Below, one piece after another: positions 17,462 through 21,701 of a stretch of 56,167 nt of DNA (its first letter is position 1; each line of letters begins with the position of its first letter). Source of the DNA: Burkholderiales bacterium (GTDB lineage Bacteria; Pseudomonadota; Gammaproteobacteria; Burkholderiales; Burkholderiaceae_E). Both the position numbers and the translations under genes were made by a program. The notes beneath the pieces are model-generated. The model ran no database searches. It worked only from the letters and a program-made list of their open reading frames with translations, and was not told the DNA's origin. The stretch is from the NCBI GenBank assembly GCA_003818495.1, contig RPRK01000010.1, positions 1-56,167 of the forward strand, read 5' to 3'.

Positions 17462-18199
17462 TCAGGAGAGCTTGAGCCAGTCCGGGCCGGGCAGTTCGTT
17501 GAAGACCTTCTTCAGACCCTGGCTCCAGCCCTGACGGATCGACGCGAAGTAGCGGTCGTCGGCGTCCACCCGATGCCGGAAGGTCACCCGCAGCGCATCG
17601 GTCTTGACCAGCGCCACGTCGAGCGGCAGGCCGACGGAGAGATTCGAGCGCATCGTCGAGTCGAACGAAACGAGCGCGCACTTGAGCGCCTCGGCCATCG
17701 TCGTCTGGGGCTTCACGACGCGGTCGATGATCGGCTTGCCGTACTTGCTCTCGCCGATCTGGAAGAACGCCGTGTCCTCGGTCGCCTCGATGAAGTTGCC
17801 TTCGGGGTAGACCAGGAACAGGCGCGGCCGCTCGCCGGCGATCTGGCCGCCGATGAGGAAGTTGCAGCTGAAGTCGACGCTCGCCTGCTGGGGCTGGCGG
17901 GCACCGTGATACGAGATCACCTGGCTGACGGTCTCGCCGAGCAGGGCGGCGCAGTCGAACAGGCTGTCCGCCGACATCAGGTTCGGCGCGTCGGTGCCGA
18001 TCGCCTTGCGCAGCGTGCTGACGACCGTCTGGGTGGTCGCCAGGTTCCCGGAGTTCAGCAGCACCAGCACCCGATCGCCCGGTGCCTCGAGCACGGTCAT
18101 CTTCGAGAACGTCGAGACGTGGTCGACACCGGCGTTGGTTCGGGAGTCGGACGCGAACAGCAAGCCCTCGTCGAGGGCCATCGCAACACAGTAGGTCAT
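17462..18199 (-). CDS. Anbu, proteasome-like peptidase
   Basis: 245 residues of the Ntn-hydrolase fold. It begins MTYCVAMALDEGLLFASDSRTNAGVD, the Anbu (ancestral beta subunit) hallmark; removal of Met would expose the catalytic Thr. Anbu forms ring or helical assemblies related to HslV and the proteasome, and its substrate is unknown. It is the last gene of a cluster with an ATP-grasp enzyme, an alpha-E protein and a transglutaminase, a neighbourhood seen with Anbu in many bacteria. A 155-bp gap separates it from the transglutaminase gene, so it may have its own promoter. Confidence 0.93.
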   Translation of the reverse strand: MTYCVAMALDEGLLFASDSRTNAGVDHVSTFSKMTVLEAPGDRVLVLLNSGNLATTQTVVSTLRKAIGTDAPNLMSADSLFDCAALLGETVSQVISYHGARQPQQASVDFSCNFLIGGQIAGERPRLFLVYPEGNFIEATEDTAFFQIGESKYGKPIIDRVVKPQTTMAEALKCALVSFDSTMRSNLSVGLPLDVALVKTDALRVTFRHRVDADDRYFASIRQGWSQGLKKVFNELPGPDWLKLS

Positions 18200-18330
18200 G
18201 GCGGGAGGCGCGGCAGCGATGCGGCCGGTGCCGCCGGCGGCGGCGCGGCGGGCGCGTGCCGATCATACCGCCCGACCGTGGCCGGTTCGGGGCCGGCTTC
18301 GACGACGGGCGCGGAACGGCGGGCCGGCGG

Positions 18331-18350
18331 CGCCCGGCGGCGCCCGGCGG
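18331..18350. repeat. 10-bp direct repeat between transglutaminase and Anbu genes
   Basis: Two perfect copies of CGCCCGGCGG in tandem, just after the end of the transglutaminase gene in its direction of transcription. The stretch is very GC-rich and can fold. The rest of the 155-bp spacer shows no clear promoter or gene. Confidence 0.7.
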
Positions 18351-18354
18351 CGAC

Positions 18355-19209
18355 TCACTGGACCTGAGTCTGGCCCTGGGTCTGGCTCTGGCTCTGGGAC
18401 TGGGACTGGGACTGGCCCTGATGCTGAGCTTCGACACGGGCCGAGGTGTGCAACTCCTCCTCCCCGCCGCCCAGACGGACGCCTCTCACCGGGCAGGCAT
18501 CGAGGTAGTCGAGACCGACCGCGAGCTTGAGGTGCGCCTCGCCGGCCTTGCCCGCATTGCTGACGTCGAACGCGATCCACCGGTTGGACAGCCATGCTTC
18601 CGCCCAGGCGTGACTCGCGACGGTCTGCCGATCGGTGGTGTAGACGTAGCCGCTGACGTAGCGGGCAGGAATGCCGAGTTCGCGGCAGCAGGCGACGAAC
18701 ACGTGAGCGTGGTCCTGGCAGACCCCGCGACCGGCCGCGAAGCCCTGCGCCGCGGTCGTGTCGACCGAGGTATGGCCCTTCTCGTAGGGCATGCGCTCGA
18801 TCAGCGCATGCATCAGATCGGTCACGCCCATCAGCGGCCGCGACTTCACCATGGCACGCAGCGGGCCGATGAACGCGCGGATCGCGTCGTCCGCGGCGGT
18901 GAGCGGCGTGTCGCGCAGGAACACCCGCGGATTGATGCGCCCGGCGGGCTCGCCGTCATCGGTCTCGTCGACCTCGACCCGCCCGCGCGCGATCAGCCGG
19001 ATCTCCTGATGGGGGGCATCGAGCGTCAGGATGTGGGTCAGGTTGTCGAAGGCATCGGTCATGGTGACCGCAGGCACGGGCAGCTCGACCTTCCACTCGA
19101 TCACGCGCTGGCGCGGCGTCGCCGCCGGGCTCAGGCGGATGTACTGGGTGCTGCGCGCGACCTCGGTCGCGTAGCGGTACACCGTTGAATGCCATACCGA
19201 CAGCAGCAT
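18355..19209 (-). CDS. Transglutaminase-like cysteine peptidase of the Anbu cluster
   Basis: 284 residues. An N-terminal beta-rich domain (about 1-100, beginning MLLSVWHSTVYRYATEVARS) precedes the transglutaminase core with the triad Cys164 (GRGVCQDHAHVF), His200 (SHAWAEAWL) and Asp215 (AFDVSN). No signal peptide is seen, so it should act in the cytoplasm. The last 22 residues or so are almost only Gln, Ser, Gly and Thr, coded by a hexanucleotide-like repeat. It starts one base after the alpha-E gene stop. Members may cleave or form isopeptide-type bonds; the real reaction is unknown. Confidence 0.92.
   Translation of the reverse strand: MLLSVWHSTVYRYATEVARSTQYIRLSPAATPRQRVIEWKVELPVPAVTMTDAFDNLTHILTLDAPHQEIRLIARGRVEVDETDDGEPAGRINPRVFLRDTPLTAADDAIRAFIGPLRAMVKSRPLMGVTDLMHALIERMPYEKGHTSVDTTAAQGFAAGRGVCQDHAHVFVACCRELGIPARYVSGYVYTTDRQTVASHAWAEAWLSNRWIAFDVSNAGKAGEAHLKLAVGLDYLDACPVRGVRLGGGEEELHTSARVEAQHQGQSQSQSQSQSQTQGQTQVQ
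18370..18417. repeat. CTGGG(A/T) hexanucleotide repeat coding a Gln/Ser tail
   Basis: Degenerate six-base units (CTGGGT, CTGGCT, CTGGGA) repeat about eight times. They encode the Ser-Gln dipeptide run at the C-terminus of the transglutaminase-like protein on the minus strand. Such runs are prone to slippage, and a change by whole units keeps the frame. Confidence 0.75.
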
Positions 19210-19210
19210 C

Positions 19211-20140
19211 TCACTTCATCTCCATGTAGGCGGCCTGGACCGCCTCGCCGAGCCGGATGTTGTTCTTGAGGAAACGCTCGAGGAAGGCGTCGAGCCCCAC
19301 CCCGTAGACGTCCTCCAGCTCGCCGTGCTCGAGCAGCGCGAGGATGTGGGCGGCGAGTCGGCGCGCGGCCCGTGCCGGGGCCTGGGGGAGTTCCGCCAGG
19401 TTGCGGACCACCTCGTCGAAGCAGAAGCGCAGCGACCGCGGCAGGGAGGGATCGAAGATCAGCAGCTCGGCGACGCGGCGGGCGTCGATCGCGTCGCGAT
19501 AGATGTCGCGATAGGCCTCCAGCGAGCTCACCGAGCGCAGCACCGCGCTCAGCCGGTAGTAGTCGGTGAGGCCGTCGCCGCCCGCCTCGGCGGCCTGGCG
19601 CGCCTGCTTGACCGACAGGATCCGGGCGGTGTTGTCGGCACGCTCGAGGAAGGTGCCGAGGCGGATGAACTGATAGGGCTGGTCGCGGCGGATCGTGGCG
19701 AAGGTGATGCCGCGGAACAGATGCGAACGCTCCTTGACCCAGTCGAAGAACGCCGCGTCGACGGGCTCCGCGCCGCCCTGGCGCTTGGCGGACAGCTGCA
19801 GCCACGTGTCGTTGATGTTCTCCCACATCTCGGAGGTGATCGAACCTCGCACGGCGCGTGCGTTCTCCCGGCTCGCCTCGAGGCAGTTGACGATCGACGA
19901 CGGGTTGTCGGGGCTCCATGCCAGGTAGCGCGCGACGTGCTCGGGGGTGAGCGGCATGCCGGTCGCACCGAACGCTTCGAGCGTGTCGGTGATGATCAGC
20001 GGCTCGCTCGCGGCGCGCTCGTCGCCGGCGCCGGAGAGCAGTGCCAGCGAGGCACCGACATCGAGGATGCGCGCCATGTTCTCGGCGCGCTCGAGGTAGC
20101 GGGACAGCCAGTAGAGGTGCGAGGCGACACGGGACAGCAT
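19211..20140 (-). CDS. Alpha-E domain protein (DUF403) of the Anbu cluster
   Basis: 309 residues, almost wholly alpha-helical, beginning MLSRVASHLYWLSRYLERAENMARILDV, which is diagnostic of the alpha-E family. The second half repeats the helical pattern with RLGTFLERADNTARIL. The ATG at 20140 was chosen over a longer frame that lies within the ATP-grasp gene. It sits 14 bp after the ATP-grasp gene and one base before the transglutaminase gene. The domain is found with circularly permuted ATP-grasp enzymes, sometimes fused to them, and is thought to act with them; its biochemical role is not known. Confidence 0.94.
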   Translation of the reverse strand: MLSRVASHLYWLSRYLERAENMARILDVGASLALLSGAGDERAASEPLIITDTLEAFGATGMPLTPEHVARYLAWSPDNPSSIVNCLEASRENARAVRGSITSEMWENINDTWLQLSAKRQGGAEPVDAAFFDWVKERSHLFRGITFATIRRDQPYQFIRLGTFLERADNTARILSVKQARQAAEAGGDGLTDYYRLSAVLRSVSSLEAYRDIYRDAIDARRVAELLIFDPSLPRSLRFCFDEVVRNLAELPQAPARAARRLAAHILALLEHGELEDVYGVGLDAFLERFLKNNIRLGEAVQAAYMEMK

Positions 20141-20154
20141 CTCGTCGCTCCTCC

Positions 20155-21642
20155 TCAGGCACCGGTCGACGCGGTGGCGTCGCCGTCCGGGTCGGCGTCG
20201 CCGCCGACGTCGACGACCCAGGTGTCCTTGGTGCCCCCGCCCTGGGACGAGTTCACCACGAGCGAACCCCGTCGCAGCGCGACGCGGGTCAGCCCGCCCG
20301 GGACGATCTTGGTCTCGCGACCGACCAGCACGAACGGGCGCAGGTCGATGTGGCGAGGCGCGACGCCCTCCTCGACGAAGGTCGGGCAGGACGACAGCGC
20401 GAGCGTGGGCTGCGCGATGTAGTTCCCGGGGTTCGCGATCAGCACCCGACGGAACGCCTCGATCTCGGCCTTGCTGCTGGTCGGCCCGACCAGCATGCCG
20501 TAGCCGCCGGCACCGTGGACCTCCTTGACGACCAGCTCGTCGAGGCGCGACAGCACGTGGGCGAGGTCGTCGGGCTTGCGGCACTGCCAGGTGGGGACGT
20601 TCTTCAGGATCGGCTCTTCGCCGAGGTAGAAGCGGACCATCTCCGGTACGTACGGGTAGATCGACTTGTCGTCGGCGACCCCGGTGCCCACCGCATTGCA
20701 GATCACGACGTTGCCCAGGCGGTAGGCAGCGAGCAGGCCCGGCACGCCGAGCATCGAATCGGGGCGGAACGCGAGCGGATCGAGGAAGTCGGCGTCGAGG
20801 CGGCGGTAGATCACGTCGACGCGCTTCGGGCCGTCGGTGGTCCGCATGAACACGCACGCGTCCTTCACGAACAGATCCTGGCCTTCGACGAGTTCCACGC
20901 CCATCTGCTGCGCGAGGAACGCATGTTCGAAGTAGGCGCTGTTGAAGCGACCCGGCGTCAGCAGCACCACCGTCGGCGAGTCGATCTCGGCGGCGGCGCG
21001 CAGGGTCTGCAGCAGCAGCGCCGGATAGTGCTCGACCGGGCGCACGTGATAGCGGCGGAAGAGGTCGGGGAACAGCCGCATCATCATCTTGCGGTTGCTC
21101 AGCATGTACGACACGCCGGAGGGCACCCGCAGATTGTCCTCGAGCACGTAGTAGCTGCCGTCCCCATGGCGCACGATGTCGACGCCGACGATGTGCGCAT
21201 AGACGTCGCGAGGCACCTTGGTGCCGATCATCGCGACCGCGAACTGGTCGTTGGCGACGATCTGGTCTTCGGGGATCAGCCCGGCCTTGAGGATCTCCTG
21301 GCCGTGATAGATGTCCGCGAGGAACCGGTTGATCGCGGTCACCCGCTGCACGAGGCCCTTCTCGAGCCGCTCCCACTCGTCGGCGGCGATGATCCGCGGC
21401 ACCACGTCCGAGGGGATCAGCCGCTCGGTGCCGCCCTCCTCGCCGTAGACCGAGAACGTGATGCCGATCCGCCGGAAGATCAGGTCGGCCTCGGCACGCT
21501 TGCCGGCCATCTGCTCGGGCGACATCGACGCCAGCCAGTCCGCGTACGCGGCATAGTGGGCGCGCGGCACGAGGCCGGCATCCAGCATCTCGTCGAACAC
21601 GCCCGGGGGCGGCGGGAGGGGAGTCAGGGCGGATGCACTCAT
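20155..21642 (-). CDS. Circularly permuted ATP-grasp protein of the Anbu cluster
   Basis: 495 residues. The N-terminal part has SVYGEEGGTERLIPSDVVPRII, the centre DGSYYVLEDNLRVPSGVSYML (ATP/metal-binding segment), then VVLLTPGRFNSAYFEHAFLA and, near the C-terminus, VVKEVHGAGGYGMLVGP and NYIAQPTLALSS, as in the DUF404/DUF407 ATP-grasp family. ATP-grasp enzymes join a carboxylate to an amine using ATP, so a peptide- or amide-forming reaction is expected. It is the first gene of the alpha-E/transglutaminase/Anbu cluster; a TAAGGT sequence six bases before the ATG may be its -10 box. Upstream is fur, on the same strand. Confidence 0.93.
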   Translation of the reverse strand: MSASALTPLPPPPGVFDEMLDAGLVPRAHYAAYADWLASMSPEQMAGKRAEADLIFRRIGITFSVYGEEGGTERLIPSDVVPRIIAADEWERLEKGLVQRVTAINRFLADIYHGQEILKAGLIPEDQIVANDQFAVAMIGTKVPRDVYAHIVGVDIVRHGDGSYYVLEDNLRVPSGVSYMLSNRKMMMRLFPDLFRRYHVRPVEHYPALLLQTLRAAAEIDSPTVVLLTPGRFNSAYFEHAFLAQQMGVELVEGQDLFVKDACVFMRTTDGPKRVDVIYRRLDADFLDPLAFRPDSMLGVPGLLAAYRLGNVVICNAVGTGVADDKSIYPYVPEMVRFYLGEEPILKNVPTWQCRKPDDLAHVLSRLDELVVKEVHGAGGYGMLVGPTSSKAEIEAFRRVLIANPGNYIAQPTLALSSCPTFVEEGVAPRHIDLRPFVLVGRETKIVPGGLTRVALRRGSLVVNSSQGGGTKDTWVVDVGGDADPDGDATASTGA

Positions 21643-21701
21643 GACCCTACCTTAGCAATAACCATGCCGTCCGAATAGCCGTCGACGGACCCGAACCGGC
21701 C

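What the first reader, a model, noticed from the sequence alone, without database searches (positions are those of the whole stretch)
17462..21642. Complete Anbu cluster: ATP-grasp, alpha-E, transglutaminase and proteasome-like peptidase
Seen: four same-strand genes, with gaps of 14, 1 and 155 bp, encode a circularly permuted ATP-grasp enzyme, an alpha-E protein, a transglutaminase-like cysteine peptidase with an intact Cys/His/Asp triad, and Anbu with the Thr at position 2 retained. Known: these families occur together in many bacteria, and comparative work has proposed a peptide-synthesis or protein-modification system, but no substrate is established. Inference: the ATP-grasp enzyme would form an amide-linked peptide or tag, the transglutaminase trim or transfer it, and Anbu degrade tagged material. 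The cluster is a candidate bacterial tagging system analogous in logic to pupylation.
Basis: partly seen in the sequence, partly recalled or inferred. Interest (0 to 1): 0.8.

Follow-up and report, generated by a model that had tools for sequence, protein, structure and literature searches.

The report
Nitrogen-starvation operon with proteasome-like peptidase
Four neighbouring bacterial genes form the known "Anbu operon", whose job has been a puzzle; its switch in this and many related genomes looks like the one cells use when they run short of nitrogen, which says when to look for its function.

Summary
Four minus-strand genes (17462-21642; gaps 14, 1 and 155 bp) encode a circularly permuted ATP-grasp, alpha-E, a transglutaminase-like peptidase and Anbu, with catalytic residues intact. 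This is the published Anbu operon: a new member of a known kind. The proposed tagging role is an old hypothesis, only partly supported: neither Pup nor its ligase was found in the genome, no gap in the operon exceeds 155 bp, no neighbouring family recurs, and sister species lack the transglutaminase.

What the tools add is regulation. A sigma-54 (-24/-12) element lies just upstream of the ATP-grasp gene (21654-21669). Such elements precede 73 of 141 related ATP-grasp genes, against 21 of 1025 other genes with intergenic DNA upstream. In this genome the pattern occurs 16 times; 8 of the other 15 sites precede amide hydrolases or importers of kinds used for nitrogen compounds. A second ATP-grasp/alpha-E cluster also carries one. 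Papers report nitrogen control of this operon in Pseudomonas putida and of a similar cluster (no Anbu named) in Burkholderia cenocepacia.

Best reading: a nitrogen-starvation amide-recycling system, probably on short peptides; the substrate is unknown.

The parts
20155..21642 (-). Circularly permuted ATP-grasp ligase, first gene of the operon
   Evidence: PF14403 556 bits, PF04174 516 bits; 3n6x 726 bits; E168, N170, R172 and K373 invariant in 68 of 68 type-1 sequences
19211..20140 (-). Alpha-E protein, all-helical tandem duplication with an ER motif in each half
   Evidence: PF04168 310 bits; AlphaFold2 pLDDT 92, pTM 0.91; N half against C half hhalign probability 99%, E 3e-17 for the one comparison
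18355..19209 (-). Transglutaminase-like cysteine peptidase, triad C164/H200/D215, Gln/Ser-rich variable tail
   Evidence: PF08379 and PF01841; triad tallies; tail differs among close relatives
17462..18199 (-). Anbu proteasome-like peptidase, Anbu-1 type, Thr directly after the start Met
   Evidence: 5loy 316 bits; T2, D18, K33; S1-pocket positions T21, F31, N49, L53, T56 fit the Anbu-1 description of PMC5666114
21654..21669 (-). Sigma-54 (-24/-12) promoter-like element CGGCATGGTTATTGCT, upstream of the ATP-grasp gene
   Evidence: exact match to YGGCAYGNNNNTTGCW; 10 of 12 consensus positions; kept in same-genus relatives while flanking DNA diverges; enrichment; one of 16 genome sites
18200..18354 (-). 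155-bp gap between transglutaminase and Anbu; possible place of a separate Anbu promoter
   Evidence: sequence; no sigma-70-like match found; separate constitutive expression known only from P. putida (PMC8050072)

Best explanation
This is an Anbu operon that belongs to the cell's sigma-54 nitrogen-starvation regulon. When good nitrogen is scarce, RNA polymerase with sigma-54, most likely driven by NtrC, transcribes the operon from the element at 21654-21669. The ATP-grasp enzyme, with alpha-E as its partner, spends ATP to make an amide bond, most likely joining an amino acid or amine to a short peptide. The transglutaminase-like enzyme and Anbu then open amide bonds in such conjugates or in short peptides, so that nitrogen is held or released as needed. 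Shown here by computation: the gene set, the intact active sites, the promoter element and its wide conservation, and the company it keeps in this genome. Shown by others in other species: nitrogen-dependent expression (P. putida; B. cenocepacia for a cluster in which no Anbu is named) and phosphate release from ATP by one such ATP-grasp protein. Inferred: that NtrC is the activator here, the ligation product, the roles of alpha-E and the transglutaminase, and that the substrates are short peptides rather than folded proteins (no unfoldase or Pup-like tag seen).
For: Sigma-54 element scoring at least 10 of 12 within 200 bp upstream: 23 of 67 type-1 ATP-grasp genes in the first locus set against 0.86% of 5820 random windows, and 51 of 75 in a second, partly overlapping set against 1.38% of 5600; upstream of alpha-E 0 of 71 and 0 of 79. 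Against real genes: 73 of 141 (42 of 92 with Anbu nearby, 31 of 49 without) versus 21 of 1025 other genes with more than 50 bp of intergenic DNA upstream. After dereplication below 70% protein identity: 16 of 33, binomial p 8e-19. NtrC-like sites gather 60-80 bp upstream of the -24 element; 19 of 63 dereplicated loci that have the element have one at 55-95 bp. The genome has two sigma-54 DNA-binding-domain genes and an NtrC (627 bits). The pattern occurs 16 times in 5.34 Mb against 4 for the reversed control. Of the other 15 sites, 8 precede an allophanate hydrolase, a dihydropyrimidinase, an amidase, three NMT1-type and one Bmp-type and one peptide-type ABC binding protein; two more flank a PHA depolymerase/GST pair. 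PMC5491218 (passages) lists dihydropyrimidinase, urea carboxylase, dipeptide and nitrate transporters, PHB depolymerase with a GST, and a DUF404/407, DUF403, transglutaminase cluster as NtrC/sigma-54 targets. PMC8050072 section 8: PP_2688 and PP_2685 log2 change 3.99 and 4.44 on nitrate versus ammonium; PP_2688 promoter 3.7-fold on nitrogen depletion. PMC6376114 (passages): orthophosphate release by the Y. bercovieri ATP-grasp.
Against: No recognisable NtrC site upstream of the window's own operon. The element sits so close to the annotated ATG (11 bp between TTGCT and ATG) that the transcript would be leaderless unless translation starts further in, for example at codon 15 or 19. In PMC7801951 (passages) the P. 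putida genes PP_2686-2688 were still induced by nitrogen limitation in an rpoN mutant (14-20 fold), and Anbu PP_2685 hardly changed in wild type (1.12), in conflict with PMC8050072. The PP_2685 promoter was nitrogen-agnostic. PMC5666114 section 14 cites work in which expression of the operon did not change under various conditions, and argues for protein degradation rather than peptide synthesis. About half of type-1 ATP-grasp genes lack a scored element (68 of 141), type-2 ATP-grasp genes have none (0 of 7 and 0 of 5), and Anbu genes that are first or alone mostly lack one (1 of 33). Of the other 15 sites, 5 precede genes without an evident nitrogen link (two TRAP DctP, OsmC, YbiB, an unnamed protein), one of the 8 counted (Bmp) has its site inside the preceding gene about 320 bp upstream, and the amidase begins about 410 bp downstream. 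No activity of the four proteins together has been measured in what I read.
Confidence: 0.45

Rival explanations
1. Pupylation-like protein tagging: ATP-grasp plus alpha-E attach an amino acid or peptide to proteins, the transglutaminase edits it, and Anbu degrades the tagged proteins (first reader; earlier Iyer 2009 and Valas and Bourne 2008 as cited in PMC6376114).
For: Ligase and proteasome homologue in one operon; starvation control fits; bacterial proteasomes support survival under nutrient starvation (PMC6466877, abstract start); Anbu occurs almost only with alpha-E (101 of 102 genomes).
Against: Neither Pup nor Pup ligase found; no recurrent family among 81 immediate neighbours, so no linked tag or unfoldase seen; no measured peptidase activity and no specific interaction detected among the operon proteins (PMC6376114); Anbu not found in 55 of 156 alpha-E genomes.
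Confidence: 0.2
2. Amine salvage: the ATP-grasp makes a peptide-amine or glutamyl-amine conjugate, as glutathionylspermidine synthetase and the gamma-glutamyl putrescine route do (recalled), and the hydrolases release it; no protein or general peptide is involved.
For: Nearest solved structure is titled putative glutathionylspermidine synthase (3n6x); part of the promoter's company is small-molecule nitrogen scavenging.
Against: Profile comparison with E. coli Gss found no significant match (hhalign probability 0.2%); no Pfam family, so no oxidase, transporter or transaminase family, is found in more than 4 of 81 immediate neighbours; a ring-forming proteasome homologue is an odd choice for a small conjugate.
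Confidence: 0.25
3. Two modules that merely share an operon: the ATP-grasp/alpha-E/transglutaminase set modifies peptides, while Anbu is an independent housekeeping or stress peptidase.
For: Anbu stands outside a family chain in 28 of 95 loci (some at contig ends); a second, Anbu-2-like gene in this genome sits only with a transglutaminase (L007); constitutive P. putida Anbu promoter.
Against: Anbu without alpha-E anywhere in the genome is rare (1 of 102); 45 of 95 loci keep the same order.
Confidence: 0.2

Closest known systems
Anbu operon of Pseudomonas aeruginosa, P. putida (PP_2685-2688) and Yersinia bercovieri
   Same: Same four families, conserved order as described in PMC6376114; catalytic residues kept; Anbu-1 type S1 pocket; nitrogen-regulated in P. 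putida
   Different: No difference in kind found; here the ATP-grasp gene follows a Fur-family gene and the element lies very near its ATG
NtrC/sigma-54 cluster I35_5080-83 of Burkholderia cenocepacia H111
   Same: DUF404/407, DUF403 and transglutaminase proteins; sigma-54 control
   Different: It has a large transglutaminase protein and no Anbu is named (the word proteasome does not occur in the main text); NtrC dependence was measured there, not here
Cluster 2 in the same genome (G000:C14, L005): large transglutaminase, fused ATP-grasp/alpha-E, transglutaminase
   Same: Same families and a sigma-54 element before the large transglutaminase (11 of 12)
   Different: No Anbu found beside it; ATP-grasp positions E168, N170, R172 replaced
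Pup-proteasome system of Actinobacteria
   Same: Logic of ligase plus proteasome homologue; link to starvation
   Different: Neither Pup nor Pup ligase found; no ATPase seen beside the operon; ATP-grasp rather than the glutamine-synthetase-like ligase (fold of the latter recalled)
Glutathionylspermidine synthetase/amidase (E. coli Gss)
   Same: ATP-dependent amide synthesis paired with an amidase
   Different: No significant profile match; one fused protein; no Anbu or alpha-E in it

Membership tests
Anbu operon | Four genes ATP-grasp, alpha-E, transglutaminase, Anbu in this order on one strand | tested here: met
Anbu operon | Anbu without propeptide, Thr after Met, with Asp17 and Lys32/33 (mature numbering) | tested here: met
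   T2, D18, K33 in the window; T2 in 91 of 92 aligned N-termini of 95 genes, one Ser, three cut or unaligned
Anbu operon | Full-length similarity to solved Anbu including the C-terminal extension | tested here: met
   residues 2-241 of 245 aligned to 5loy 1-239
Anbu operon | Open-ring dodecamer | not testable with these tools
   needs purification; known from PMC5666114
Anbu-1 subtype | S1 pocket T20, F30, polar 48, L52, S/T55 (mature numbering) | tested here: met
   T, F, N, L, T in the window; N at mature position 48 is shared by 16 of 95, T and S are commoner
Sigma-54 nitrogen regulon | GG-N10-GC type -24/-12 element upstream of the first gene | tested here: met
   21654-21669; family enrichment
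Sigma-54 nitrogen regulon | Recognisable NtrC site upstream | tested here: not met
   no site of 9 of 10 or better in the window's upstream 400 bp; present at 55-95 bp from the element in 19 of 63 dereplicated loci
Sigma-54 nitrogen regulon | Induction under nitrogen limitation | not testable with these tools
   reported only in P. putida and B. cenocepacia in what I read
Pupylation | Pup and Pup ligase in the genome | tested here: not met
   PF05639 and PF03136 not found in G000 (97% complete), both found in the control C. glutamicum
Pupylation | AAA+ ATPase or tag gene in or beside the operon | tested here: not met
   window neighbours are Fur, RecN, NAD kinase, HrcA; gaps 14, 1, 155 bp; no family in more than 4 of 81 immediate neighbours of 41 clusters
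Glutathionylspermidine synthetase | Sequence-profile match to a characterised enzyme | tested here: inconclusive
   no significant hhalign match to E. coli Gss; a fold comparison of the ATP-grasp could not be run

The most novel reading that the evidence does not exclude
The Anbu operon and the unlinked fused ATP-grasp/alpha-E cluster of the same genome form one two-locus, sigma-54-controlled starvation system that marks peptides or proteins with amide-linked amino acids and then recycles them: a Gram-negative counterpart of pupylation that needs no protein tag, with the second cluster supplying the transglutaminase where the first has lost it.
Probability: 0.15. Interest if true: 0.85.

Novelty: new member of a known kind. 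Interest (0 to 1): 0.42.

Why it matters
Anbu has been known since 2008 (PMC5666114) and in the papers I read has no substrate and no measured peptidase activity. Wide conservation of a sigma-54 element, and the operon's place among nitrogen-scavenging genes in this genome, give one growth condition and one testable purpose, and may explain why assays on purified parts found nothing. Finding the substrate would reveal either a new bacterial tagging route or a new nitrogen-salvage pathway.

Tried and rejected

Unresolved: ATP-grasp structure prediction and Foldseek's own PDB search could not be run because the machine was busy.

Not in print: searches in the held open-access library (listings; passages or sections of eight of the papers) showed nitrogen control in P. 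putida and B. cenocepacia but no survey of sigma-54 elements across Anbu operons. Hervas 2009 and Iyer 2009 are not held and Hervas 2008 and Valas and Bourne 2008 are known to me only as cited. I recall, from no call, that the Pfam text for Alpha-E mentions tandem duplication and inactive ATP-grasp partners, so those two notes may not be new.
Full report
The observation. The window holds, on the minus strand, ATP-grasp 20155-21642, alpha-E 19211-20140, transglutaminase-like 18355-19209 and Anbu 17462-18199, with gaps of 14, 1 and 155 bp. Alpha-E has no solved relative by sequence at a meaningful E-value. The neighbours are a Fur-family gene upstream and RecN, NAD kinase and HrcA beyond Anbu; they look like ordinary housekeeping genes.

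The genome. The window lies in G000, a draft of 5.34 Mb in 572 contigs, 97.2% complete, 5.7% contaminated. Among the nearest named relatives of its alpha-E are betaproteobacterial assemblies (the very nearest, L101, is titled only uncultured bacterium), so I infer a betaproteobacterium. The genome also has HslV, a second alpha-E in a fused ATP-grasp/alpha-E gene with two transglutaminases beside it, and a divergent second Anbu with 34% identity followed by another transglutaminase. The same-genus genomes G009 and G011 also have such a divergent Anbu, so contamination is an unlikely source; four such genes (L007-L010) have Ile and two Arg at S1-pocket positions, as PMC5666114 describes for Anbu-2.

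How fixed the set is. I fetched loci around 95 Anbu genes (not a random sample: mostly one per genus, plus close relatives). Forty-five have ATP-grasp, alpha-E, transglutaminase, Anbu in order (same strand, gaps up to 900 bp); 28 have Anbu outside any family chain (some at contig ends or with the cluster elsewhere); 8 have ATP-grasp, alpha-E, Anbu without transglutaminase; the remaining 14 are other orders or cut clusters. In several of those 14 the partner is the large transglutaminase of cluster 2. In 299 genomes of the phylum, 102 have Anbu and 156 alpha-E (I take the two draws to be the same genomes, as the listed handles agree), 101 both (Fisher p 1.6e-37, not corrected for descent). Thus Anbu nearly always comes with alpha-E in the genome, but not the reverse. 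In the same genus, G002, G004, G006, G008 and G010 have the operon without transglutaminase (G004 is cut at a contig end) and only distant transglutaminases in the genome; their other three genes, where whole, are 77-87% identical to the window's (L014-L017). G001 and G003 also gave no close transglutaminase, but their loci are cut. A small tree is compatible with one loss. G025 gave no transglutaminase match at all with this query.

Active sites. Anbu Thr2 is kept in 91 of 92 N-termini that could be aligned (three genes are cut or misaligned; one has Ser). The transglutaminase triad is kept in 77-78 of 80 sequences, cluster-2 ones included. In type-1 ATP-grasps E168, N170 and R172 are invariant (68 of 68); in the eight type-2 sequences that cover the region all three are replaced (ten were scored as type 2, of which one is a cut fragment and one, L099, a cut type-1 sequence, both set aside). 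By the general logic of ATP-grasp enzymes these may be metal and substrate ligands; that is inference.

Alpha-E. The predicted structure is confident (pLDDT 92, pTM 0.91) and wholly helical. The two halves match each other as profiles (hhalign probability 99%, E 3e-17 for the one comparison), each with an ER-A-E/D-N motif. A comparison with solved structures gave no clear relative.

Regulation, the new evidence. I scored the sigma-54 consensus TGGCACG-N4-TTGCW with fixed GG and GC. In the first locus set 23 of 67 type-1 ATP-grasp genes have at least 10 of 12 positions in the 200 bp upstream, against 0.86% of 5820 random windows from the same loci; alpha-E 0 of 71, internal Anbu 0 of 59, type-2 ATP-grasp 0 of 7. 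In a second set, loci found through alpha-E in named genomes, it is 51 of 75 against 1.38% of 5600; alpha-E 0 of 79, all Anbu 0 of 35, type-2 ATP-grasp 0 of 5. Against other called genes with more than 50 bp of upstream intergenic DNA the contrast is 73 of 141 versus 21 of 1025. It survives dereplication (16 of 33 below 70% identity). The two sets overlap in part (L101 appears to be the same contig as L019), which dereplication removes. Among same-genus relatives the element is kept with a changing N4 spacer and, in L014, L015 and L094, a start codon about 50 bp further away.

NtrC. Among 63 dereplicated loci with the element, sites resembling GCACC-N5-GGTGC (9 of 10 or better) pile up 60-80 bp upstream of it; 19 have one at 55-95 bp. 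As a plain count in 400 bp such sites are only a little above background (12 of 67 against 11% of 1940 windows, looser spacing); it is the position that is striking. The window itself has none. The genome encodes sigma-54 and NtrC.

The company in this genome. The pattern YGGCAYGNNNNTTGCW occurs 16 times in 5.34 Mb, the reversed control 4 times. I looked at all 15 others. Eight precede: allophanate hydrolase; dihydropyrimidinase; an amidase whose gene begins about 410 bp downstream; three NMT1-type binding proteins (a family with nitrate, taurine and similar importers; recalled); a Bmp-type binding protein, with the site inside the preceding gene about 320 bp away; a peptide-type binding protein. 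Two lie back to back before a PHA depolymerase and a GST. Five precede genes without an evident nitrogen link: two TRAP DctP proteins, OsmC, YbiB and one protein without a Pfam match. PMC5491218 (passages) lists dihydropyrimidinase, urea carboxylase, dipeptide and nitrate transporters, the PHB depolymerase with a GST, and a DUF404/407, DUF403, transglutaminase cluster as NtrC/sigma-54 targets in B. cenocepacia. I made no statistical test of this functional bias. Of 31 large transglutaminase genes, whether first in their operon or not, 9 carry the element, including the one that heads cluster 2 in this genome.

Published expression. P. putida: PMC8050072 (section 8 read whole, other passages) gives log2 changes of 3.99 for PP_2688 and 4.44 for PP_2685, a nitrogen-responsive PP_2688 promoter and a nitrogen-agnostic PP_2685 promoter. 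PMC7801951 (passages) gives 11-15 fold for PP_2686-2688 but 1.12 for PP_2685 in wild type, and still 14-20 fold in an rpoN mutant, which speaks against strict sigma-54 dependence there. PMC3597751 (passages) found DUF403/404/407 and Bact_transglu_N associated with urea-metabolism domains in marine metagenomes.

Mechanism. The ATP-grasp of Y. bercovieri releases phosphate from ATP, and Anbu showed no peptidase activity (PMC6376114, passages; also PMC5666114 section 13), though P. aeruginosa Anbu binds epoxomicin through Thr1; the authors of PMC5666114 favour protein degradation over peptide synthesis (section 14). I commit to an amide-recycling role under nitrogen starvation, more likely on short peptides or peptide conjugates than on folded proteins, because no unfoldase and no Pup-like tag was seen. 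The regulatory part I hold at about 0.85, the chemical part at about 0.45-0.5.

Verdict. The useful addition is the wide, computed link to the nitrogen-starvation regulon, known before from two species in what I could read.

Noticed in passing
G000:C51, L007:2026-3612: A second, divergent Anbu (34% identity; Ile and two Arg at S1-pocket positions as in Anbu-2) directly followed by a transglutaminase with another N-terminal domain; no ATP-grasp or alpha-E found beside it.
   Followed up: partly
G000:C14, L005:8394-15316: Cluster 2: large transglutaminase (about 1200 aa), fused ATP-grasp/alpha-E and a transglutaminase, with its own sigma-54 element TGGCACGCCGCTTGCG.
   Followed up: partly
L005, L026, L027, L032, L077, L078, L088, L089: Type-2 ATP-grasps replace the invariant E, N and R of the Anbu-operon type (E-D-N-x-R), mostly by x-D-R-T-Q, which suggests changed or lost ATP chemistry.
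   Followed up: partly
L014, L015, L016, L017, L094: Same-genus genomes have lost the transglutaminase from the operon but keep ATP-grasp, alpha-E and Anbu.
   Followed up: yes
L021:8077-9367: In G017 Anbu alone remains next to the Fur-family gene, with RecN on the same contig, as if the other three genes were deleted; an ATP-grasp, alpha-E, Anbu, large transglutaminase set lies elsewhere in that genome (L024).
   Followed up: no
L047:8060-8788: An Anbu with Ser instead of Thr after the start Met (MSYC).
   Followed up: no
window 18355-18430: Gln/Ser-rich repeat tail of the transglutaminase, encoded by a short DNA repeat; length varies among close relatives.
   Followed up: partly
L184-L198: Fifteen further sigma-54-like sites in this genome, 8 before amide hydrolases or importers of kinds used for nitrogen compounds: a first sketch of its nitrogen regulon.
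   Followed up: partly
window 19211-20140: Alpha-E is a tandem duplication; both halves carry an ER-A-E/D-N motif.
   Followed up: yes
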